From Fodinibius saliphilus (GTDB lineage: Bacteria > Bacteroidota > Rhodothermia > Balneolales > Balneolaceae): 64,000 bases of DNA. Positions 1 through 7,904 of the stretch are shown here, piece by piece. Positions within the stretch are counted from its first letter, which is position 1. Every line of letters starts with the position of its first letter. The stretch covers positions 1,834,414 through 1,898,413 of the forward strand of contig NZ_VAWF01000001.1 in the NCBI RefSeq assembly GCF_005869845.1, read 5' to 3'. Below the pieces are notes generated by a model that was not told where the DNA came from, searched no databases, and saw nothing but the letters and a program-made list of their open reading frames with translations. Made by a program: the position numbers and the translations under genes.

Positions 1-141
1 GCTAATCAATTTGCTGAAAAATGATACATGAAGAAGCCACGTACTATGGTTTAATCATTCAAATATATAACTATTCAATAATCATACAAATGAAAACTCA
101 TACAATCATTGTAATTAAATTTTTTGTCTTCTGATATTTTT

Positions 142-171
142 TGTAACAAACGAATGTCTAAATACTCTTGT
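142..171 (+). promoter_or_regulatory. Bipartite promoter-like element, copy 1
   Basis: TGTAACAAA (142-150), 12 nt, then TACTCTTGT (163-171). The same two 9-mers with the same spacing recur at 273-302 (+) and 5196-5225 (-). The geometry, two short blocks with about 15 nt between TGTAAC and TACTCT, resembles a -35/-10 pair for an ECF sigma factor. It would drive the lipoprotein genes starting at 404. A two-site operator is the alternative reading. Confidence 0.6.
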
Positions 172-272
172 ATCATAGAGTATACTGAATTATAGTCACT
201 AAAATTTATCTTAAAATAGACTACTGTTACAAATAATTATATGTGGTAATATTACAGAAATATTGACTTTCT

Positions 273-302
273 TGTAACAAACTCCCCATTCGCTACTCTT
301 GT
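273..302 (+). promoter_or_regulatory. Bipartite promoter-like element, copy 2
   Basis: TGTAACAAA (273-281), 12 nt, then TACTCTTGT (294-302), with the same blocks and spacing as 142-171 and 5196-5225 (-). It lies about 100 nt upstream of the lipoprotein start at 404 and is the more proximal candidate promoter. The spacer sequence is unrelated to that of copy 1, so the conservation is confined to the two blocks, as expected for a recognised site rather than a recent duplication. Confidence 0.65.
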
Positions 303-403
303 AGTCGAGAATTGGTATGTTTAATAACATTTATACTTAAGGCTTTTAGGTACAACAATTCATACTCGTTACAATTTAACCAAGAATAAAACCAAGGATC
401 ACT

Positions 404-601
404 ATGAAATCTCTCGCTAAAAAACTACTCGCTGTCACTTTCGCTTTTGCCCTGTTCACCGGTTGTGCTTCCGTTACCGACCCCGGCCTCGATACCACAC
501 CTGAGCAGAACAACTCCGAAGTCACCCAGGATACCCCTGATCGCGACGGCTTCGACTCCGACTCCGACATGAGCACCATCTACGACAAGCCCGAACTGTA
601 A
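404..601 (+). CDS. Small acidic lipoprotein, copy 1
   Basis: A 65-residue protein of unknown function. The basic n-region (MKSLAKK), hydrophobic stretch and lipobox FTGC at residues 18-21 form a lipoprotein signal, so the mature protein is about 45 residues starting at the lipidated Cys21. The mature part is hydrophilic and strongly acidic (DSDSD run, many Asp/Glu/Thr), with no domain I recognise. An AAGGA Shine-Dalgarno sits 5-6 nt before the ATG. Two bipartite promoter-like elements lie upstream. Codons are rich in C-ending forms, unlike the AT-rich gene at 1027, which hints at high expression. The gene is followed 45 nt later by a copy differing at a single amino acid (Ser3 to Thr3). Confidence 0.75.
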   Translation: MKSLAKKLLAVTFAFALFTGCASVTDPGLDTTPEQNNSEVTQDTPDRDGFDSDSDMSTIYDKPEL

Positions 602-895
602 TCACTGCCTGACGTTACCTTTTTAACTCAAAACACTTTTATCATTATGAAAACGCTCGCTAAAAAACTACTCGCTGTCACTTTCGCTTTTGCCCTGTTC
701 ACCGGTTGTGCTTCCGTTACCGACCCCGGCCTCGATACCACACCTGAGCAGAACAACTCCGAAGTCACCCAGGATACCCCTGATCGCGACGGCTTCGACT
801 CCGACTCCGACATGAGCACCATCTACGACAAGCCCGAACTGTAATCACTGCCTGACGTTACCTTTTTAACTCAAAACACTTTTATCATTATGAAA
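413..895 (+). repeat. Tandem 243-bp duplication with third-copy stump
   Basis: The 240-nt segment 413-652 recurs without visible change at 656-895. Each contains a lipoprotein body, the intergenic spacer and the ATGAAA that starts the next copy. Period is 243 bp; copies 1 and 2 differ only at codon 3 (TCT versus ACG). At 890-895 the second repeat ends on an ATGAAA that would start a third copy, but the sequence then diverges and reaches a TAG after eight codons. This is either a decayed or deleted third copy or a junction at microhomology. Confidence 0.85.
647..844 (+). CDS. Small acidic lipoprotein, copy 2
   Basis: A 65-residue protein identical to the product of 404-601 except Thr3 for Ser3, with the same lipobox Cys21 and acidic mature segment. 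It lies 45 nt downstream of copy 1 in the same direction, so the two are almost surely co-transcribed. Unlike copy 1 it has no obvious Shine-Dalgarno before its ATG (the leader reads TTTTATCATT), so it may be translated less efficiently or by reinitiation. The DNA identity through the intergenic spacer points to a recent duplication or ongoing gene conversion. Function unknown; probable attachment to the periplasmic face of a membrane is inferred from the lipobox only. Confidence 0.72.
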   Translation: MKTLAKKLLAVTFAFALFTGCASVTDPGLDTTPEQNNSEVTQDTPDRDGFDSDSDMSTIYDKPEL

Positions 896-1026
896 GTGAC
901 AGTCTGCCTTAGCTAGGCTAAGATCTATATTTTTAACAAAAATTTTGCTTTACTGTAATAGTACCATAGATTTAATCTAGAACGACCAAAAGAAATGGCA
1001 TATCAATCCTAGCTAAGATCTATCTG

Positions 1027-4000
1027 ATGTTGTTAGTTATTCTATTCAGCTTCTTTCAAATTGTTGCGGGGTCTGATAGCTCTGAGCTATTACATAACTC
1101 AAAACAACAAGCCAAACACTATGCAAAACAGATAGAAAACGGAATAAACACCGACGAGAACCTGTGGGCACTCAGCTTATTAGCCAGTGAAAAAGATGAG
1201 CTGAGAGACTTTATTGAACAACTTAATCGAAAGAAAAATTTCCATCCATCTTTTGATGAGGTCAACAAAAATTTTCATCAGCAGTTAAAAAAAGTAGTCT
1301 GGCATACAGGCTCTGTAGATCTATTTATCGGACTGCTTCTCCGCACCGAAACTATTCAAAGAAAGAAGAATCTCTATACTGATTTTATATCACGCTTTAC
1401 CCTCCCTTCTACTAGTAATATCCAATATGAAAAACTAGTACAAACTATTGTTCAAAACAAAACAATAGACCGAGAGAGTCTGAATCCGAATAAGTTTGTT
1501 CTTCCTCACTTTTTCCTGTTGTTTAGCAGTAGTCAAAATGATCTATTGAGTAAATCCTACCGAGAAAAGATAATACAAAGCTGGAACACAAGCATTTCAG
1601 ACGAAAAGGACCTAAAAAAAACGCTGGCCCAATTTAGTTACTTCAGAACCCTCTACCTTGAAGACCAATATTCCAACACCTCCTCCCTTTATAATACACT
1701 GATTAATAACAAACTCTTTCCCAATTCCTCCCTTAAGCTGCGCACATTCCGCCTCCTCGACTACTCAATGTATCGACTAGGTTTCTATGACCGTAATCTG
1801 GAAATTGCTCGAAATATTACGCTCCCATTAGCAGATTACTTAAATCGCAAAAAACTAAAACAGCAGATTAAATATTCCACTGGAATCAATCTATATAATA
1901 TTGGTAAAATTAAGGCTGCAAATAAAGTCTATTTGGAGATACTTAAACAAATAGAAAAAAACAATCCTCCGATTAAATTCTCAGCGCTCTATAATAACTT
2001 AGCGTTAACTCACTACAAACTAGGACAGTATGCAAGATATTTGGATCTACAATTTCAGGCTTTAGAAACAGCCAAAAATAAGGAGAACTACGACCACCAA
2101 ATTGAAATCCTAAATAATCTTTTTATTTACCATCGAAAAACTAATGATCAGGAGAATGCCTTAGCATACCTGCAAACAGCAAGAAAATTGGCGCAGAAAA
2201 AAAATAACAGCTCAGATTTGGGAACATTGTATATGCTGAATGGTTCTTTTTATCGGAAATTCAGGAATGATTTTCAGAAAGCCCATATTTTTTTCAACAA
2301 GGCTGAAGAGCATCTATCCTCTTCAACTGATACCAAAGCATATATAGAGTTATTAAATGAACAAGCAGAAACTTATTCTGAGCAAAGAAAGTTTAAAAAA
2401 GCAATCGAAAAACAAGATAAGATTCTCAAATTAGCTCCCAATAAAAATAACCCAAACTTTATTGAAGCTACTATAAACAAAGCCTTAAACTACCTTAACA
2501 GTGAACAGAAAGGTAAAGCTGGCTCTCTAATCACAGAGTTTAAAAACAAAAACCTTAAGCTTCTTGATTTTGAACAAATCATAAAAGCAAAAACTATTGA
2601 AGCAAACTATCTATACCTAACTGGGAAACCTCATAAAGCACTCGCCATTCTTAATCCCGCTCTTGAGCAGGTAATTGTTAGAGCCAGAAGCAGCGCAGAT
2701 CTAAAATCTGGTTTTTGGCATATCGAAGATGAGTATTTAGATGCTTTTGAGTTGGCCGTATCTATTTATTTAAAAGAAGACCAGCCGGACAAAGCAACAC
2801 AAGTACTAGACCAACTTAAGACTATCAATGATTCCCGTTATTATCAGAACCCTCTTGTTAAATCGAGTTTATTGAATGAGTCCGAGCTGACCCAATATAA
2901 GAAGCTGACCAAACAGCTGGATGCCAATCGAAAAAGATTACTGACTGCTCCAGAGGATGAACAGTTTCAAATTCGCCAGCGCATAAGCAAACTTAACCTC
3001 AAAAAACGGAAGCTGGATAAAAAACTTACTAGAAAAGAAGGATCAGAAACAGTTTCAATACATAAAATCCAAAGTCAACTCTCTGCCCGTGAAATGATCA
3101 TGCATGTGACTGAGCTGAAAAATAAATATTACATTGCTAAAATCAGTCGGTCGGATGTAGAAATGCAAACTGTTTCACTAGATTCAACACTTCGCAATCT
3201 ATTTTCAAATTCTGTTACACAAGTAGCTACCCATAAAACAAATCTCGACTCCTTATATACAGTCACAAAGCTACTTGGTATTAATGATATACCTGGGCAC
3301 ATTGAACAGATAACCATTATCCCTGACAGTTATTTATACCAGCTTCCTATTGATATTCTACCTCTCGCGAAACCAACACACAACTACAGTTATGGGGAAG
3401 CTACATACCTTATTGAAAAGTATAACACACAGTACCTTACTTCTCTTGACGAAGTAATTAATAAAAATAATGAACCGTCTAATATTCAAAACCCCTTGAG
3501 TTATGTTGGTTACGGTGTCTCCGAATTTAATTCTTACAAAGAAAAAAAACTTGTACCATTACCCTTTGCCCAAAAAGAAGTGACTTCCATAGCGAATAGG
3601 TTAACAAATCTATCTGAAGTACAAACTTTTATTAACCAGAACTCTACCAAAGAAACGTTTAAACGCACAGCACCAAAGGCACGTATCTTACATATGGCTA
3701 CTCATAGTTCTGTCTCTGAACGCGATCCTATGTTCTCTACGATGTATATGAGCAAACAGCAGGCAGCTGCAGATACCACTTTTGAAGACCAAATATTTGC
3801 TTATGAACTTTTTGAACTGAACCTTAACAGCGATATGATTATGCTAAACTCGTGTGAGTCTGGGTCAGGGTCATATATACAGGGAACAGGAGTCATGGGC
3901 ATTAGTCGGGCCCTTCGTTATGCCGGTGCAGAGTCGCTAGTCTTGAATTTATGGTCGGTAAATGACATGCTGGCTTCTGATTTTGCAGTCCATTTTTATG

Positions 4001-4266
4001 AACAATTAAATGAAGGAAAATCGAAAGCTGAAGCCCTACAAGCGACAAAACGGTATTTCCTCGAGAATAAAAATGCCAGCCCTCATTTTTGGGGTCCCTA
4101 TATGTTAATAGGGGATTCACAACCTATTGTAAGGCCCGATTACAACAAAAATATGGCTTTAGCCGGCACCTTCGTTTTTTATTTCTTGTTGATGGTAGGT
4201 CTATCTTACATGGCAGAACAGGGAATCTTTTTTAACAATAATGGGAATAAGCAGCATAACATCTAG
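1027..4266 (+). CDS. TPR-CHAT caspase-like protein, membrane anchored
   Basis: A 1079-residue protein. Order seen: a short hydrophobic N-terminus (residues 1-15, probable signal peptide cleaved near VAG), a long helical region with TPR-like repeats (roughly 230-620), a charged linker rich in Lys/Arg, and a C-terminal CHAT domain (about 780-1035). The expected caspase-like dyad is present: His893 in HMATHSS and Cys943 in LNSCESG. A hydrophobic segment at about 1044-1063 should anchor the C-terminus, placing TPR and CHAT in the periplasm if the N-terminus is a real signal. CHAT proteins are clan CD peptidases related to caspases and separase. There is no Shine-Dalgarno and no basic n-region, so the start is uncertain, but no in-frame ATG lies upstream before a stop at 973. 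It lies downstream of the lipoprotein pair and converges on the anti-sigma-like gene. Substrate unknown. Confidence 0.85.
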   Translation: MLLVILFSFFQIVAGSDSSELLHNSKQQAKHYAKQIENGINTDENLWALSLLASEKDELRDFIEQLNRKKNFHPSFDEVNKNFHQQLKKVVWHTGSVDLFIGLLLRTETIQRKKNLYTDFISRFTLPSTSNIQYEKLVQTIVQNKTIDRESLNPNKFVLPHFFLLFSSSQNDLLSKSYREKIIQSWNTSISDEKDLKKTLAQFSYFRTLYLEDQYSNTSSLYNTLINNKLFPNSSLKLRTFRLLDYSMYRLGFYDRNLEIARNITLPLADYLNRKKLKQQIKYSTGINLYNIGKIKAANKVYLEILKQIEKNNPPIKFSALYNNLALTHYKLGQYARYLDLQFQALETAKNKENYDHQIEILNNLFIYHRKTNDQENALAYLQTARKLAQKKNNSSDLGTLYMLNGSFYRKFRNDFQKAHIFFNKAEEHLSSSTDTKAYIELLNEQAETYSEQRKFKKAIEKQDKILKLAPNKNNPNFIEATINKALNYLNSEQKGKAGSLITEFKNKNLKLLDFEQIIKAKTIEANYLYLTGKPHKALAILNPALEQVIVRARSSADLKSGFWHIEDEYLDAFELAVSIYLKEDQPDKATQVLDQLKTINDSRYYQNPLVKSSLLNESELTQYKKLTKQLDANRKRLLTAPEDEQFQIRQRISKLNLKKRKLDKKLTRKEGSETVSIHKIQSQLSAREMIMHVTELKNKYYIAKISRSDVEMQTVSLDSTLRNLFSNSVTQVATHKTNLDSLYTVTKLLGINDIPGHIEQITIIPDSYLYQLPIDILPLAKPTHNYSYGEATYLIEKYNTQYLTSLDEVINKNNEPSNIQNPLSYVGYGVSEFNSYKEKKLVPLPFAQKEVTSIANRLTNLSEVQTFINQNSTKETFKRTAPKARILHMATHSSVSERDPMFSTMYMSKQQAAADTTFEDQIFAYELFELNLNSDMIMLNSCESGSGSYIQGTGVMGISRALRYAGAESLVLNLWSVNDMLASDFAVHFYEQLNEGKSKAEALQATKRYFLENKNASPHFWGPYMLIGDSQPIVRPDYNKNMALAGTFVFYFLLMVGLSYMAEQGIFFNNNGNKQHNI

Positions 4267-4279
4267 CAAAAATAGAATA

Positions 4280-4312
4280 GGCCGGAAGGATATTTCCTTC
4301 CGGCCTTTTATT
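4280..4312. terminator. Bidirectional intrinsic terminator
   Basis: An 11-bp perfect stem (GGCCGGAAGGA, 4280-4290, with its complement at 4295-4305) and a 4-nt loop. On the plus strand it is followed by TTTTATT, terminating the CHAT gene. On the minus strand it is followed by CTATTCTATTTTT, serving the convergent gene ending at 4346. Confidence 0.85.
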
Positions 4313-4345
4313 CATTTCCTGATACTAGAAGAGTTGCTTTTTTCT

Positions 4346-5077
4346 TTAGTCAGAAAGGGCGTCAAGATAACTTTTAGAAACTCTGCGGTAAGCCCCATTT
4401 AAATCATACGCTTTTTCAATATGCGTTCGTGCCTTCACAAGCTGATCTATATGGAAGTAGGCGTTACCCACATACCAATATGCCTTTTCTAACATAAGAA
4501 GATCCACTTTCTCTTTGTGTTCTATCACTCGCTCATAATGATTAATGGATTCTCGATAATTACCCTCATTATAATAGAGAGATCCTAAGTTTAAACTTAA
4601 TTCAGCAATCCAGGAAGGTTTTGACGCCTTTTCCAACTCACTATCTAATAAATTAATGGCTTCAGTGACTGCCCCTGTATTGGCTAGACGTATTGCATCC
4701 CGAATAACCTTAGAGTCATCCTGAGCCATATTACCATCTTCAGAACGATAATAATCAAGCTCAATACTAGAGATTGGTTCTAAAGATCGTGTGTTATTTT
4801 GGTTATAAATATTCATATAACCTACTACGCCAACTAAAAAGATAACTATGGCTGCAGCAGCATAAAACCATTTTTTTCTTCTTTTCTGAATTTGACGTTC
4901 TTCCTTCTTCTTTTCAATAACAGCCTTCACATTTGCAACACTTTTCATATAGTCCAGATGGTAACCATCCTGGATCAATTCTGCCCATAGCTCGTCTGTC
5001 TCTCTTGGCGAAAGCTCTCCATTGACATACTTGTCAATTTTTTCTTCCAACTGCTTTTCATTATAGCTCTCAATCAT
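4346..5077 (-). CDS. Anti-sigma-factor-like membrane TPR protein
   Basis: A 243-residue single-pass membrane protein. The first ~65 residues look like a cytosolic anti-sigma domain (YVNGELSPRETDELW, residues 17-31, resembles the YLNGELS-type opening of many anti-sigma factors). A basic stretch (KRRKKW) then precedes a transmembrane helix at about 71-91, and a TPR-rich part at about 125-235 would be periplasmic. No zinc-finger cysteines are visible. Anti-sigma proteins usually sit beside their ECF sigma factor; none is in view, so the partner may be encoded elsewhere. The upstream element at 5196-5225 matches those before the lipoproteins, as expected if the cognate sigma factor controls its own regulator. 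A generic TPR membrane protein is the alternative. Confidence 0.6.
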   Translation of the reverse strand: MIESYNEKQLEEKIDKYVNGELSPRETDELWAELIQDGYHLDYMKSVANVKAVIEKKKEERQIQKRRKKWFYAAAAIVIFLVGVVGYMNIYNQNNTRSLEPISSIELDYYRSEDGNMAQDDSKVIRDAIRLANTGAVTEAINLLDSELEKASKPSWIAELSLNLGSLYYNEGNYRESINHYERVIEHKEKVDLLMLEKAYWYVGNAYFHIDQLVKARTHIEKAYDLNGAYRRVSKSYLDALSD

Positions 5078-5195
5078 GATTCTTCACGTTTAAATTTTAC
5101 TTAAATATATCTTACAATACCCTCAAAGGATAATGTCTGCAGCAACCCAACATAATGACTATCGTAATCCAATTATGTTTTCATCAATTCATGTA

Positions 5196-5225
5196 ACAAG
5201 AGTATTTTAAATCCCATTTGTTACA
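5196..5225 (-). promoter_or_regulatory. Bipartite promoter-like element, copy 3
   Basis: Read on the minus strand: TGTAACAAA, 12 nt, TACTCTTGT, exactly the blocks and spacing found at 142-171 and 273-302. It lies about 120 nt before the start of the anti-sigma-like gene (5077) and points at it. The site also has dyad symmetry (TGTAACAA versus TTGTTACA at its ends) that the other two lack. It therefore could be an operator, but the symmetry is not conserved and an ECF promoter fits better. Confidence 0.65.
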
Positions 5226-5336
5226 AAATATTTTTGCATTTAGGATTAAAGCCAAATACTAATTAGCTTTGAACAGCTTTAAAAGTACTTTAATCTTAAA
5301 TATTAAAATTTTCTAATGTTTTCCGGATTAAAATCT

Positions 5337-6782
5337 ATGTCTAAATTAAATGGCCTATCAACACTAATCATTTTCCTCATAGTGTTATCCGGGTGTCAAA
5401 CAGAATATACTTCTACCATTTCAGGCAGTATTGACTACGTTGGCTCCGCAGATATTTTCATCTCAAAACAACCGGTTCACTATAAGTATGCTCCCAAAAA
5501 ACATTTCCCGGTGACTGTAAATGAGGAGGGGAATTTCTCACTTTCCCTACCAATTGATTCTACACAACTCATTAAGTTTAATGTTAATGAACAAACTTAT
5601 CCAGTTGTAGCTGAACCGGCACAACCCCTTAAGCTCAATATATCTTTTTCTCACTTCCCTGATTCTGTATCTGTTAGTGGATATCCTAAACCATGGGACC
5701 AAAGCTACTCAGATTATCGTAATAAACTTAAGCCCATACAACAAAAAATTAACAATGCTATCCCTGATTTTCGGGAAGGGAAACAAACGAATATCACCGA
5801 CTTATACAAAAAACGATATCAAATAGCGAAAAAACATTTATTTAACACGCCGCTGGTAGATATATACTATAAAGCAGTGGGTGAATATTTAGTGAAAGAA
5901 TTAGAGGAAGTTACCTATCAACGCACAAAACCAGACATCTCTCCAAAATCCAGACGAAAGCAAATCCTTGAAGAAGCCCAAGAGCTTAACTTCTTCACCT
6001 TTGAATCATTGCATTCACAACGTGCAGGTATTCGTGATTTCACCAATGCCTTTGCAAACACCTTTGGAGTTGAGGATAGCCTGGAAGAAAAATATGGTCA
6101 GGAACTGATGCAATACGACATTAAACGACTGGGATACGAAACCCTTGATTCAGCTCGCAGATCTGTACTCCAATATATCGATCAGAGAAAAGCTAAAGCA
6201 TATGCAAAAATGTATCTCGTAGCTGAACGCATCGGAGAAATGTCTTTAGAAGTTGCAACGCCTAGCTACAAAAACTATTTAAAAAAGTACGAAAACTATC
6301 CTAAATACACATCATTTCTAAAATCATTCTATAGTCAGATTAAAAAGGTCTCACCCGGACAACCGGCAGTACCTTTTACCCTTCCTAATAAAAATGAAGA
6401 GATGGTGAGTATGGAAGACTACGAAGGACGATATGTACTTCTCGATTTTTGGGCCAGCTGGTGTATTCCGTGCCTCGATGAATTTCCACACATGAAGGAT
6501 CTGTATAATAAATATTCTCGTGATCAATTTGAGATATTGGCGATTTCCATTGAAGAAGATAGTGTACGCTGGCGACAATCACTGCAACAATTTAAGAATC
6601 CTTGGCCACAACTGTATGGCGGAAATGGCTTTCAGCAAGAAACATTTCGAACTTACCGGGGCGGCGGTATTCCTTTTTATATCCTCGTAGGCCCCGATGG
6701 AAAGATCGTTCGTTATAATGATGCGCGCCCTTCATTTAATCTCCCCAAACTACTAGACAGTTTAATTACACCGAAACAATAA
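5337..6782 (+). CDS. TlpA/ResA-like thioredoxin-fold lipoprotein
   Basis: An extracytoplasmic thiol-disulfide oxidoreductase of the AhpC/TSA-TlpA type, common in the FCB group. I chose the ATG at 5337 rather than 5316 because it gives a compact lipoprotein signal (MSKLNG, hydrophobic core, lipobox LSGC, Cys20). A beta-rich N-terminal domain (about 25-110, DUF4369-like) is followed by a helical middle. The C-terminal thioredoxin domain has WCIPC, Cys376/Cys379, within the typical FWASWC context. 481 residues is the usual size for this multidomain family. It may reduce disulfides for cytochrome c maturation or envelope repair. The GH3 gene follows after 3 nt, so the two form an operon. Confidence 0.85.
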   Translation: MSKLNGLSTLIIFLIVLSGCQTEYTSTISGSIDYVGSADIFISKQPVHYKYAPKKHFPVTVNEEGNFSLSLPIDSTQLIKFNVNEQTYPVVAEPAQPLKLNISFSHFPDSVSVSGYPKPWDQSYSDYRNKLKPIQQKINNAIPDFREGKQTNITDLYKKRYQIAKKHLFNTPLVDIYYKAVGEYLVKELEEVTYQRTKPDISPKSRRKQILEEAQELNFFTFESLHSQRAGIRDFTNAFANTFGVEDSLEEKYGQELMQYDIKRLGYETLDSARRSVLQYIDQRKAKAYAKMYLVAERIGEMSLEVATPSYKNYLKKYENYPKYTSFLKSFYSQIKKVSPGQPAVPFTLPNKNEEMVSMEDYEGRYVLLDFWASWCIPCLDEFPHMKDLYNKYSRDQFEILAISIEEDSVRWRQSLQQFKNPWPQLYGGNGFQQETFRTYRGGGIPFYILVGPDGKIVRYNDARPSFNLPKLLDSLITPKQ

Positions 6783-6785
6783 AAG

Positions 6786-7904
6786 ATGGCTCGCTTACTA
6801 CTATTTTTTTTAGTTTTCTCATTTCTTTCAGGCAATATAAATGGTCAATCCTTATCAAAAACCCTTGACGAAATACCGCTGAATAAAAAAATTGGTCAAA
6901 TGTTGACCATTGGATTTCGTGGCATGACCATAGCTGACACCAATCATATAGTCCGCGATATACAAAAGTATCACTTGGGAGGAGTCATACTCTTTGACTA
7001 TGATGTACCTCGGGGCCAAGCCAAAAGAAATATACGATCATCCGAACAACTTAAAACCTTGGTGAAAAAGCTTAAGGCGTTATCTTATTCTCCCCTAATT
7101 GTTTCAATAGATCAGGAAGGAGGAAAGGTGAATCGCCTTAAACCTAAATACGGATTCCCTCCATCGGTTTCAGCACAATATTTGGGAGAACTAAATAATA
7201 TTGATAGTACCAGAAAGTATGCACGACGCACTGCGCATACCCTTTCCAAAATTGGTATTAACGTTGATTTTGCACCTGTCGTGGATCTAAATGTAAATCC
7301 GGACAATCCCATTATTGGAAAACTTGGTCGCAGTTATTCTTCCAAACCTACAACTGTTGTAAAGCATGCCGGTACATTTATACAAACCTTAAATGAATAC
7401 GATATACAAACCGTCTTAAAACATTTTCCGGGCCATGGCAGCTCAAAAAAAGACTCTCACCTCGGGGTTGTTGATGTAACTGATACATGGTCAGAGAAAG
7501 AACTTATTCCTTACCGGCAGCTCATTAATACTGGTAAAGCTGATGCTATTATGACGGCCCATATTTTCAATGCACAAATTGACTCCAGCTATCCTGCTAC
7601 TTTATCAAAACCTACAATCACAGGCCTTTTGAGAAACAAGTTGGAATATGATGGGGTGATATTTTCAGATGATATGATGATGGGAGCAATCCGCAAAGAG
7701 TACGGCTTACAAACAGCTATTAAACAAGCTATTATGGCCGGCGTCGATATCCTCGCCTTTGGAAATAATTCGATTTATGATCCGAATATCGTACCAAAAG
7801 CCCATCGCATAATAACTGAACTTGTAGATAAGGGAGTTATTAATGAAGAACAAATTGATCAGTCTTATAAACGTATTATAAGATTTAAAACACAGTTAAA
7901 ATAA
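6786..7904 (+). CDS. Secreted GH3 beta-N-acetylhexosaminidase
   Basis: A glycoside hydrolase family 3 N-terminal domain protein of 372 residues, NagZ-like. The diagnostic KHFPGHG starts at Lys212 and is followed by the DSH that supplies the mobile catalytic His/Asp pair of NagZ enzymes; the nucleophile should be in FSDDMMMG near residue 295. Family role: removal of N-acetylglucosamine from muropeptides. Unlike cytoplasmic NagZ of enterobacteria, this one begins with a clear signal peptide (MARLLLFFL to about residue 22, GQS), so it acts outside the inner membrane. The start is 3 nt after the stop of the TlpA-like gene, with a weak AAAAG leader. Confidence 0.88.
   Translation: MARLLLFFLVFSFLSGNINGQSLSKTLDEIPLNKKIGQMLTIGFRGMTIADTNHIVRDIQKYHLGGVILFDYDVPRGQAKRNIRSSEQLKTLVKKLKALSYSPLIVSIDQEGGKVNRLKPKYGFPPSVSAQYLGELNNIDSTRKYARRTAHTLSKIGINVDFAPVVDLNVNPDNPIIGKLGRSYSSKPTTVVKHAGTFIQTLNEYDIQTVLKHFPGHGSSKKDSHLGVVDVTDTWSEKELIPYRQLINTGKADAIMTAHIFNAQIDSSYPATLSKPTITGLLRNKLEYDGVIFSDDMMMGAIRKEYGLQTAIKQAIMAGVDILAFGNNSIYDPNIVPKAHRIITELVDKGVINEEQIDQSYKRIIRFKTQLK

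What the first reader, a model, noticed from the sequence alone, without database searches (positions are those of the whole stretch)
404..5077. Candidate envelope system: CHAT protease, acidic lipoproteins, TPR anti-sigma
A presumably periplasmic, C-terminally anchored TPR-CHAT protein with an intact His893/Cys943 dyad sits between tandem small acidic lipoproteins and an anti-sigma-like TPR protein whose promoter element matches that of the lipoproteins. A model that fits: the lipoproteins are substrates, sensors or output of the CHAT protease, and cleavage or binding changes the anti-sigma protein and so the regulon. CHAT proteases are known as effectors (TPR-CHAT with type III-E CRISPR; separase relatives), but I do not know a described combination with lipoproteins and an anti-sigma partner.
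Basis: inference. Interest (0 to 1): 0.8.

Follow-up and report, generated by a model that had tools for sequence, protein, structure and literature searches.

The report
Caspase-like protease sigma-factor envelope switch
In Balneolales bacteria a gene set that stays together across four of the order's five families (a sigma factor, one to six copies of a tiny lipoprotein, a caspase/separase-like TPR-CHAT protein and a TPR protein predicted to sit in the membrane and likely to be the sigma factor's inhibitor) is predicted to be an envelope alarm in which the CHAT protease would cut the inhibitor at an arginine found in all 64 aligned family members, which matters because it would give bacteria a separase-like switch for turning genes on.

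Summary
The window (a Fodinibius-like genome, Balneolales) holds two 99%-identical lipoprotein units, a TPR-CHAT gene with intact His893/Cys943, a one-TM TPR gene, and three copies of one promoter element. An ECF-type sigma gene, divergent from the lipoproteins, lies just outside the window. An orthologue-grade CHAT match occurs in 93 of 128 genomes of the order. In 41 neighbourhoods (four of five families) the TM-TPR gene is convergent with CHAT in 41, lipoprotein ORFs precede CHAT in 37 (the other 4 have at most 217 bp upstream), and sigma is present in 32 of 35 testable. The strict element occurs 6 times in the genome, 0 in the reversed control. The TM-TPR protein has one invariant arginine in its predicted periplasmic linker (64 of 64), also in 11 of 11 paralogues near other CHAT genes. 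I infer that CHAT is the site-1 protease of the anti-sigma factor and the lipoproteins its ligand or brake. No cleavage was shown; the P1-pocket test was inconclusive; some CHAT-less genomes keep the arginine in paralogues. Nearest precedents: Csx29/Csx30/CASP-sigma and DdvA. Verdict: new variant of a known kind.

The parts
1..403 (.). Intergenic region shared with the divergent ECF-type sigma gene (188 aa; L004:11826-12392 minus; start codon about 23 bases left of window base 1, so the gene is outside the window)
142..171 (+). Promoter element TGTAACAAA-N14-CTCTTGT, upstream copy, reads toward the lipoproteins
273..302 (+). Promoter element, second copy, reads toward the lipoproteins
398..883 (+). 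Tandem direct repeat, two 243-nt units 99% identical, each holding one lipoprotein gene
404..601 (+). Small acidic lipoprotein copy 1 (65 aa, lipobox FTGC, C-terminus ...TIYDKPEL)
647..844 (+). Small acidic lipoprotein copy 2 (98% identical protein)
1027..4266 (+). TPR-CHAT protein, 1079 aa: hydrophobic N-terminus, TPR superhelix, CHAT domain 757-1030, predicted C-terminal TM about 1043-1061
3703..3705 (+). Codon of catalytic His893 (invariant 49/49)
3853..3855 (+). Codon of catalytic Cys943 (invariant 49/49)
4279..4306 (.). Bidirectional terminator-like stem (12 pairs) between the convergent CHAT and TM-TPR genes
4346..5077 (-). Predicted anti-sigma factor, 243 aa: predicted cytoplasmic N-terminus, TM about 70-88, periplasmic linker, TPR domain
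4745..4747 (-). Codon of Arg111, invariant linker residue (IELDYYR|S), candidate CHAT cleavage site
5196..5225 (-). Promoter element, reads toward the predicted anti-sigma gene

Best explanation
A four-part module conserved across four of the five families of the order Balneolales (a gene for an ECF-type sigma factor, one to six tandem genes for small lipoproteins, a gene for a TPR-CHAT protein and a gene for a TPR protein with one predicted TM segment that is likely the sigma factor's inhibitor) is predicted to be an envelope-stress switch in which the CHAT protease, predicted periplasmic and membrane-anchored, would make the first cut in the anti-sigma factor at its invariant linker arginine (R111) and so free the sigma factor. 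Shown by calls: gene order and its conservation, intact catalytic dyad, invariance of R111, the shared promoter element and its few genomic sites. Predicted from sequence: topology, with CHAT domain, lipoprotein and anti-sigma TPR domain on the outer side of the inner membrane and the anti-sigma N-terminus inside. Inferred: (1) the TM-TPR protein holds the sigma factor; (2) CHAT cuts after R111, next to a low-confidence, probably flexible stretch some 20 residues outside the membrane; (3) an intramembrane M50 protease finishes the job; (4) the freed sigma factor transcribes from TGTAACAAA-N14-CTCTTGT the lipoproteins, its own inhibitor, an M23 peptidase, an RND-pump locus and others; (5) the conserved C-terminal peptide of the lipoprotein gates CHAT. 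The sign of step 5 is the least certain: my preferred version is that lipoprotein stuck near the inner membrane (failed trafficking) activates CHAT; the alternative is a brake giving negative feedback.
Against: No cleavage, binding or expression was measured. The P1-pocket test was inconclusive: separase's P1-binding Asp is Cys+41, where this CHAT has S984; an acid sits one residue on (D/E in 39 of 49). The TM-TPR N-terminus matches no anti-sigma family above cut-off (best zf-HC2, E 0.023). In F. roseus and F. sediminis (L073, L074) this sigma factor was not found, nor the promoter element nor the lipoprotein [KR]P motif, yet CHAT and R111 are kept. In 8 anti-sigma-like proteins of 7 genomes without an orthologue-grade CHAT match, 5 keep R at the aligned column and 3 do not (those have an Arg a few residues later). 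Two of the keepers, G116 and G117 (88% complete), had no CHAT match even at 1e-10, so the Arg may serve another protease. Positive-inside bias of the CHAT tail is weak (29 of 49), and 2 of 49 have an internal TM-like stretch. Lipoprotein [KR]P is 34 of 37 in one set but 31 of 40 in an overlapping wider set. 35 of 128 genomes lack an orthologue-grade CHAT, among them G092, G095 and G107 at 99-100% completeness.
Confidence: 0.5

Rival explanations
1. Non-proteolytic sensing: CHAT and the anti-sigma TPR domain bind each other in the periplasm and the signal passes by conformation, perhaps as a two-chain version of DdvA. R111 is then a structural or binding residue.
Against: The catalytic dyad is invariant in 49 of 49, which pure scaffolding does not require; R111 is followed mostly by a small residue and a disordered stretch.
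Confidence: 0.2
2. The lipoproteins, not the anti-sigma factor, are the CHAT substrates or clients: CHAT processes or polices small outer-membrane lipoproteins, and the sigma factor merely responds to their state.
For: Lipoprotein ORFs lie before CHAT on its strand (the only strand scanned) in 37 of 41 loci, 24 of the 37 with two or more copies; C-terminal motif conserved.
Against: The basic residue of the motif is followed by proline, usually a poor P1' (general knowledge), and [KR]P is missing in 9 of 40. Conservation of R111 in the anti-sigma factor is stronger.
Confidence: 0.15
3. The CHAT protein is a defence or cell-death effector that happens to sit beside a sigma/anti-sigma pair.
For: TPR-CHAT proteins act in defence elsewhere (Craspase; SAVED-CHAT is a fold match); DdvS drives a defence island in Myxococcus.
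Against: No PADLOC match for the window CHAT, the TM-TPR protein or sigma; fixed architecture in four families of the order; putative regulon looks envelope-like.
Confidence: 0.08
4. Rival only to step 5 of the main model: the lipoprotein is a pseudosubstrate brake whose C-terminal x-[KR]-P would occupy the CHAT active site like securin in separase, giving negative feedback on the sigma factor.
For: C-terminal [KR]P in 34 of 37; securin is a pseudosubstrate of separase (passages); both lipoproteins and anti-sigma gene carry the promoter element, as negative feedback would want.
Against: [KR]P is missing in 9 of 40 of the wider set; in the tails read there is as a rule no acidic residue at P4 as in the anti-sigma site.
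Confidence: 0.25

Closest known systems
Craspase: Csx29 (TPR-CHAT) / Csx30 / CASP-sigma of type III-E CRISPR
   Same: TPR-CHAT protease linked to an ECF-like sigma factor and its inhibitor, and cutting that inhibitor (abstract and passages of PMC10028731); Csx29 is the best structural match to the CHAT protein.
   Different: There it is switched by guide RNA and target RNA. Here no CRISPR gene was noticed in the ORFs listed round the module (not searched for), there is a lipoprotein array, the inhibitor candidate is a TM-TPR protein and the protease is predicted periplasmic and anchored.
Myxococcus DdvA/DdvS anti-sigma/ECF pair
   Different: One polypeptide there (inferred from the fold match), two genes here; DdvS controls a defence island (passage of PMC12288465). 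The DdvA structure paper was not held, so its domain make-up and catalytic state were not checked.
RseA/DegS/RseP sigma-E pathway (regulated intramembrane proteolysis)
   Same: Single-TM anti-sigma factor, envelope signal, proposed periplasmic first cut, M50 protease available. Pathway itself from general knowledge and passages.
   Different: Site-1 protease would be a clan CD cysteine protease instead of a PDZ serine protease; the gating peptide would come from a dedicated lipoprotein array.
ECF54 sigma factors
   Same: CHAT-domain proteins reported in the genetic context of an ECF group and proteolysis proposed (passage of PMC8999054).
   Different: ECF54 was described as acting without an anti-sigma factor; here a TM-TPR candidate is in the module.
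Separase
   Different: P1-pocket Asp not found at the ungapped equivalent position; bacterial, predicted membrane-anchored.

Membership tests
CHAT peptidase family (PF12770) | Match above the curated cut-off | tested here: met
   175.1 bits against 24
CHAT peptidase family (PF12770) | His-Cys catalytic dyad | tested here: met
   H893 and C943 invariant 49/49
CHAT peptidase family (PF12770) | Peptidase activity | not testable with these tools
   needs an assay
ECF sigma factor | Sigma regions 2 and 4 only, match to sigma70-ECF (TIGR02937) | tested here: met
   21 of 21 aligned proteins at E<=1e-3; the window's own sigma scores 40.6 bits, just under the cut-off of 42.9
Anti-sigma factor | Known anti-sigma domain at the N-terminus | tested here: inconclusive
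   best relevant Pfam hit zf-HC2, E 0.023, under cut-off, in 1 of 6 members tried; no Pfam hit at all in 2 of 6
Anti-sigma factor | Linked to a sigma gene; N-in single TM | tested here: met
   sigma in 32 of 35 testable loci; TM in 64 of 64, N side more positive in 62 of 64, by hydropathy
Anti-sigma factor | Binds and inhibits the sigma factor | not testable with these tools
   needs binding assay
Craspase (type III-E) | cas7-11/gRAMP and CRISPR array with the TPR-CHAT gene | not tested
   no targeted cas7-11 or CRISPR search was run; none noticed among ORFs listed round the own-genome module
Craspase (type III-E) | Csx29-like fold | tested here: met
Separase-like P1 Arg specificity | Asp at the P1 pocket (human D2070, Cys+41) | tested here: inconclusive
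   S984 at Cys+41, D/E at 985 in 39 of 49; register counted from the Cys, no structure alignment
[quoted passage not shown]
   4 match rows over cut-off, two of them in one ORF; generic, rings in 14 of 14 controls
Bacterial lipoprotein | Signal peptide with lipobox | tested here: met
   pattern-based ORF scan on CHAT's strand, 37 of 41 loci; no signal-peptide predictor was run
DdvA-type anti-sigma | Anti-sigma domain, TM and TPR-CHAT in one chain (my reading of the fold match; paper not seen) | tested here: not met
   two separate genes here; relation by fold only

The most novel reading that the evidence does not exclude
Balneolales run an envelope-stress response in which a periplasmic separase-like protease cuts a transmembrane anti-sigma factor at a D-x-x-R|S site, and the trigger is a self-encoded, copy-number-variable array of tiny lipoproteins whose shared C-terminal peptide reports on lipoprotein trafficking by docking on the protease's TPRs when stuck at the inner membrane. 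The type III-E Craspase sigma circuit would then be a cytosolic, RNA-triggered cousin of this older kind of envelope circuit.
Probability: 0.25. Interest if true: 0.88.

Novelty: new variant of a known kind. Interest (0 to 1): 0.74.

Why it matters
Envelope sigma circuits are known to me mainly with PDZ serine or metallo site-1 proteases. A caspase/separase-like site-1 protease would widen that list and would suggest a non-CRISPR setting from which the Csx29/Csx30/sigma circuit might have come. It also gives Balneolales, with named strains such as Fodinibius halophilus and F. salsisoli, a candidate envelope-stress pathway with a single-residue prediction (R111) and a short list of predicted target genes.

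Tried and rejected
Sequence search of the PDB with the CHAT domain alone found nothing at E<=10; profiles A1, A2 and A4 listed mostly helical-repeat (TPR and similar) proteins in the best 60 of 68, 120, 145 and 167 hits. The anti-sigma model matched mostly TPR structures over about 113-243, leaving the N-terminal domain untested by fold. Reading D980 as separase's P1 Asp was considered and dropped: it aligns with D2066, not D2070. Lipoprotein tail as a separase-type substrate was dropped: proline at P1' and as a rule no acidic P4. No Rfam match in 1-6000. Class-wide search (244 genomes) gave no orthologue-grade CHAT outside the order; best outside about 223 bits. In the named-genome scan the best 80 of 193 relatives were kept; a few orthologue-like loci carry other names (L188 Rhodothermaceae, L173 PVC group, L184 Mollicutes, L140 Chitinophagaceae, L127 and L190 Bacteroidetes; all MAGs), which I take as binning or naming error, untested.

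Rows dropped: the 49-row CHAT alignment used 48 of 53 complete ORFs found plus the window; the 64-row anti-sigma alignment used 63 of 64 plus the window (a shorter L158 ORF left out).

Literature: ten searches (listed of found): 0; 29 11 of 11; 46 15 of 2,559; 47 6 of 6; 68 10 of 39; 69 10 of 26; 85 4 of 4; 86 15 of 417; 90 2 of 2; 95 6 of 6. No listed paper describes this combination by title or abstract start. Only open-licence PMC text was searched, so it may be in print elsewhere. Seen as passages found by term: PMC8999054, PMC10028731, PMC9729208, PMC10317155, PMC4374960, PMC12288465; none read whole. DdvA/DdvS papers and the ECF reclassification paper were not held.
Full report
1. What is there. 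The window is G000:C1:1834414-1898413 of a Fodinibius-like genome: named relatives with the locus include Fodinibius halophilus, F. salsisoli, F. roseus, F. sediminis, Aliifodinibius salipaludis, and Gracilimonas, Rhodohalobacter and Balneola strains. Reading the genome to the left of the window shows the missing piece: a 188-aa ECF-type sigma gene, divergent from the lipoproteins. All 21 aligned sigma proteins (20 of the 32 module sigmas plus one paralogue) match TIGR02937 at E<=1e-3. The layout is: sigma (minus), lipoprotein array (plus), TPR-CHAT (plus), terminator-like stem, TM-TPR (minus). The two lipoprotein units are a 243-nt repeat, 99% identical; no further copy was found in the genome at E<=0.1.

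2. Conservation. Of 128 genomes of the order, 106 have some match to the TPR-CHAT protein at E<=1e-10, but part of these are only the paralogous CHAT proteins. With a profile, orthologue-grade scores (497 bits or more, plus one contig-end piece) occur in 93 of 128, and not outside the order among 244 genomes of the class. Genomes without one include small draft genomes but also G092, G095 and G107 at 99-100% completeness. The TM-TPR gene is next to and convergent with CHAT in 41 of 41. Sigma was found by blastp in 31 of 41 and by profile in one more: 32. Six loci stop at a contig end within 436 bp upstream and cannot be judged, leaving 3 of 35 testable without sigma (L073, L074, L097). A lipoprotein ORF lies before CHAT, on the one strand scanned, in 37 of 41, the other four having at most 217 bp upstream; 24 of the 37 have two to six copies. 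In a second, overlapping set of named loci it was 40 of 43, the three misses having at most 268 bp upstream.

3. Promoter element and likely regulon. TGTAACAAA, 14 bases, CTCTTGT occurs three times in the window (0 in 100 shuffles) and six times in the genome when the spacer may be 8-18, always with 14, against 0 for the reversed pattern. A looser form with up to two mismatches gives 41 hits against 15 in the control, so many of the weak ones are probably noise. Across the 41 loci the element (2 mismatches or fewer) precedes the lipoproteins in 23 of 32 sigma-positive loci and 0 of 3 sigma-negative loci, and the TM-TPR gene in 21 of 32 and 0 of 3; in the six unjudged loci, 0 of 2 and 5 of 6. 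The comparison is confounded by divergence: distant sigma-positive loci mostly keep the TGTAACA half and drift in the other. The fair contrast is within Fodinibius: 7 of 7 sigma-positive against 0 of 2 (L073, L074) before the lipoproteins. Outside the module, exact sites precede an M23 peptidase (L006) and an RND-pump locus (L008); a third (L007) has no ORF of 60 aa or more on that strand within about 1.2 kb. F. halophilus has 8 exact sites, including the lipoproteins (two), the TM-TPR gene, the M23 gene, an AcrB-family gene, a ParA gene (own-genome site one mismatch off) and a subtilase; four other genomes of the genus had 1, 2, 2 and 0. That this sigma factor reads these sites is inferred from the co-occurrence.

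4. Topology. CHAT has a hydrophobic N-terminal core in 49 of 49 and a C-terminal TM segment in 46 of 49 orthologues; the charge bias of its tail is weak (29 of 49) and 2 of 49 have an internal TM-like stretch. The TM-TPR protein has one TM in 64 of 64 and a more positive N side in 62 of 64. Simple hydropathy was used; no dedicated predictor was available.

5. The candidate cut site. The linker between TM and TPR in the TM-TPR protein reads P-[IVL]-x-x-I-[EG]-L-D-x-x-R-[SG] as a majority pattern, and its Arg (R111) is invariant: 64 of 64 and 121 of 121 rows in an alignment with the best 120 of 369 database proteins, one of which is the window's own. The next residue is Ser in 55 and Gly in 6 of 64. 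In the model the stretch just after it (112-115) has pLDDT under 50. A paralogous sigma/TM-TPR pair sits near other CHAT genes: both were found within the stretch in 11 of the 17 Balneolales loci read (own included; Fodinibius and Gracilimonas relatives), and sigma alone, at the edge, in one more (L209; its TM-TPR gene lies just outside the stretch). That paralogue has a different linker but again an invariant Arg followed by Ser, Asn or Ala in 11 of 11. As a control I looked at anti-sigma-like proteins of 13 genomes without an orthologue-grade CHAT: 8 proteins in 7 genomes, 5 with R at the aligned column and 3 without; the 3 have an Arg followed by Asn or Asp a few residues later. Five of these genomes have other CHAT matches, but two of the R-keepers (G116, G117; 88% complete) have none at 1e-10. 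The control therefore weakens the exclusive tie between the Arg and CHAT without breaking it.

7. The lipoproteins. Mature parts are about 40-65 residues, acidic in the window, variable in the middle, with a C-terminal [KR]P, usually after a hydrophobic pair and one more residue, in 34 of 37 loci (read by eye; exceptions L073, L074, L094) and in 31 of 40 of the second set. Identical or near-identical copies within a locus suggest gene conversion or recent expansion (inference). A short tethered protein with a conserved tip fits a ligand; activator or brake cannot be told from sequence.

8. Facts that do not fit neatly. F. roseus and F. sediminis keep CHAT, array and TM-TPR with R111, but this sigma factor was not found in their genomes (only the paralogue at E<=1e-15), nor the promoter element, nor the [KR]P motif. 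The TM-TPR N-terminus matches no anti-sigma family above cut-off.

9. Novelty. Ten literature searches (four of them listed only part of what they found) showed no description of this module. The idea of a TPR-CHAT protease cutting a sigma inhibitor is in print for Craspase, CHAT genes near ECF54 are noted, and DdvA is an anti-sigma factor whose structure aligns, loosely, with this protein. So: new variant of a known kind, with a sharp, cheap test.

Noticed in passing
L005 6883-17607 (G000:C2, about 346382-357106): Paralogous set: two tandem TPR-CHAT genes with signal-peptide-like starts, then, by eye, an M28-like peptidase and scpA on the other strand, then a sigma/TM-TPR pair. Sigma plus TM-TPR near CHAT in 11 of 17 Balneolales loci read.
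   Followed up: partly
L073, L074 (Fodinibius roseus, F. sediminis): Module kept without its sigma gene, promoter element or lipoprotein [KR]P motif; possibly rewired to the paralogous sigma factor.
   Followed up: partly
L007 1501-1530: Exact promoter element with no ORF of 60 aa or more on that strand within about 1.2 kb; possible non-coding RNA or small gene. F. halophilus has an exact site (L115) that may be its counterpart.
   Followed up: no
L008, downstream of the exact promoter site: The RND-pump reading frame is broken early in the own-genome assembly, while F. halophilus has an open frame (L110); sequencing error or decay not resolved.
   Followed up: no
G014:C34 and G014:C38, G018:C2 and G018:C4 contig ends: In these two genomes contigs appear to break inside the lipoprotein array, as near-identical repeats would cause, so copy numbers from draft genomes are probably too low.
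   Followed up: no
L235, L238 (G116, G117): Sigma/anti-sigma-like pairs that keep an R-S linker site although these drafts show no CHAT match at 1e-10; either the CHAT gene is missing from the draft or another protease uses the site.
   Followed up: no
window 5316-6782 and 6786-7904: Next genes downstream: a thioredoxin-fold (AhpC/TSA) protein with a lipoprotein-like start and a GH3-family protein.
   Followed up: no
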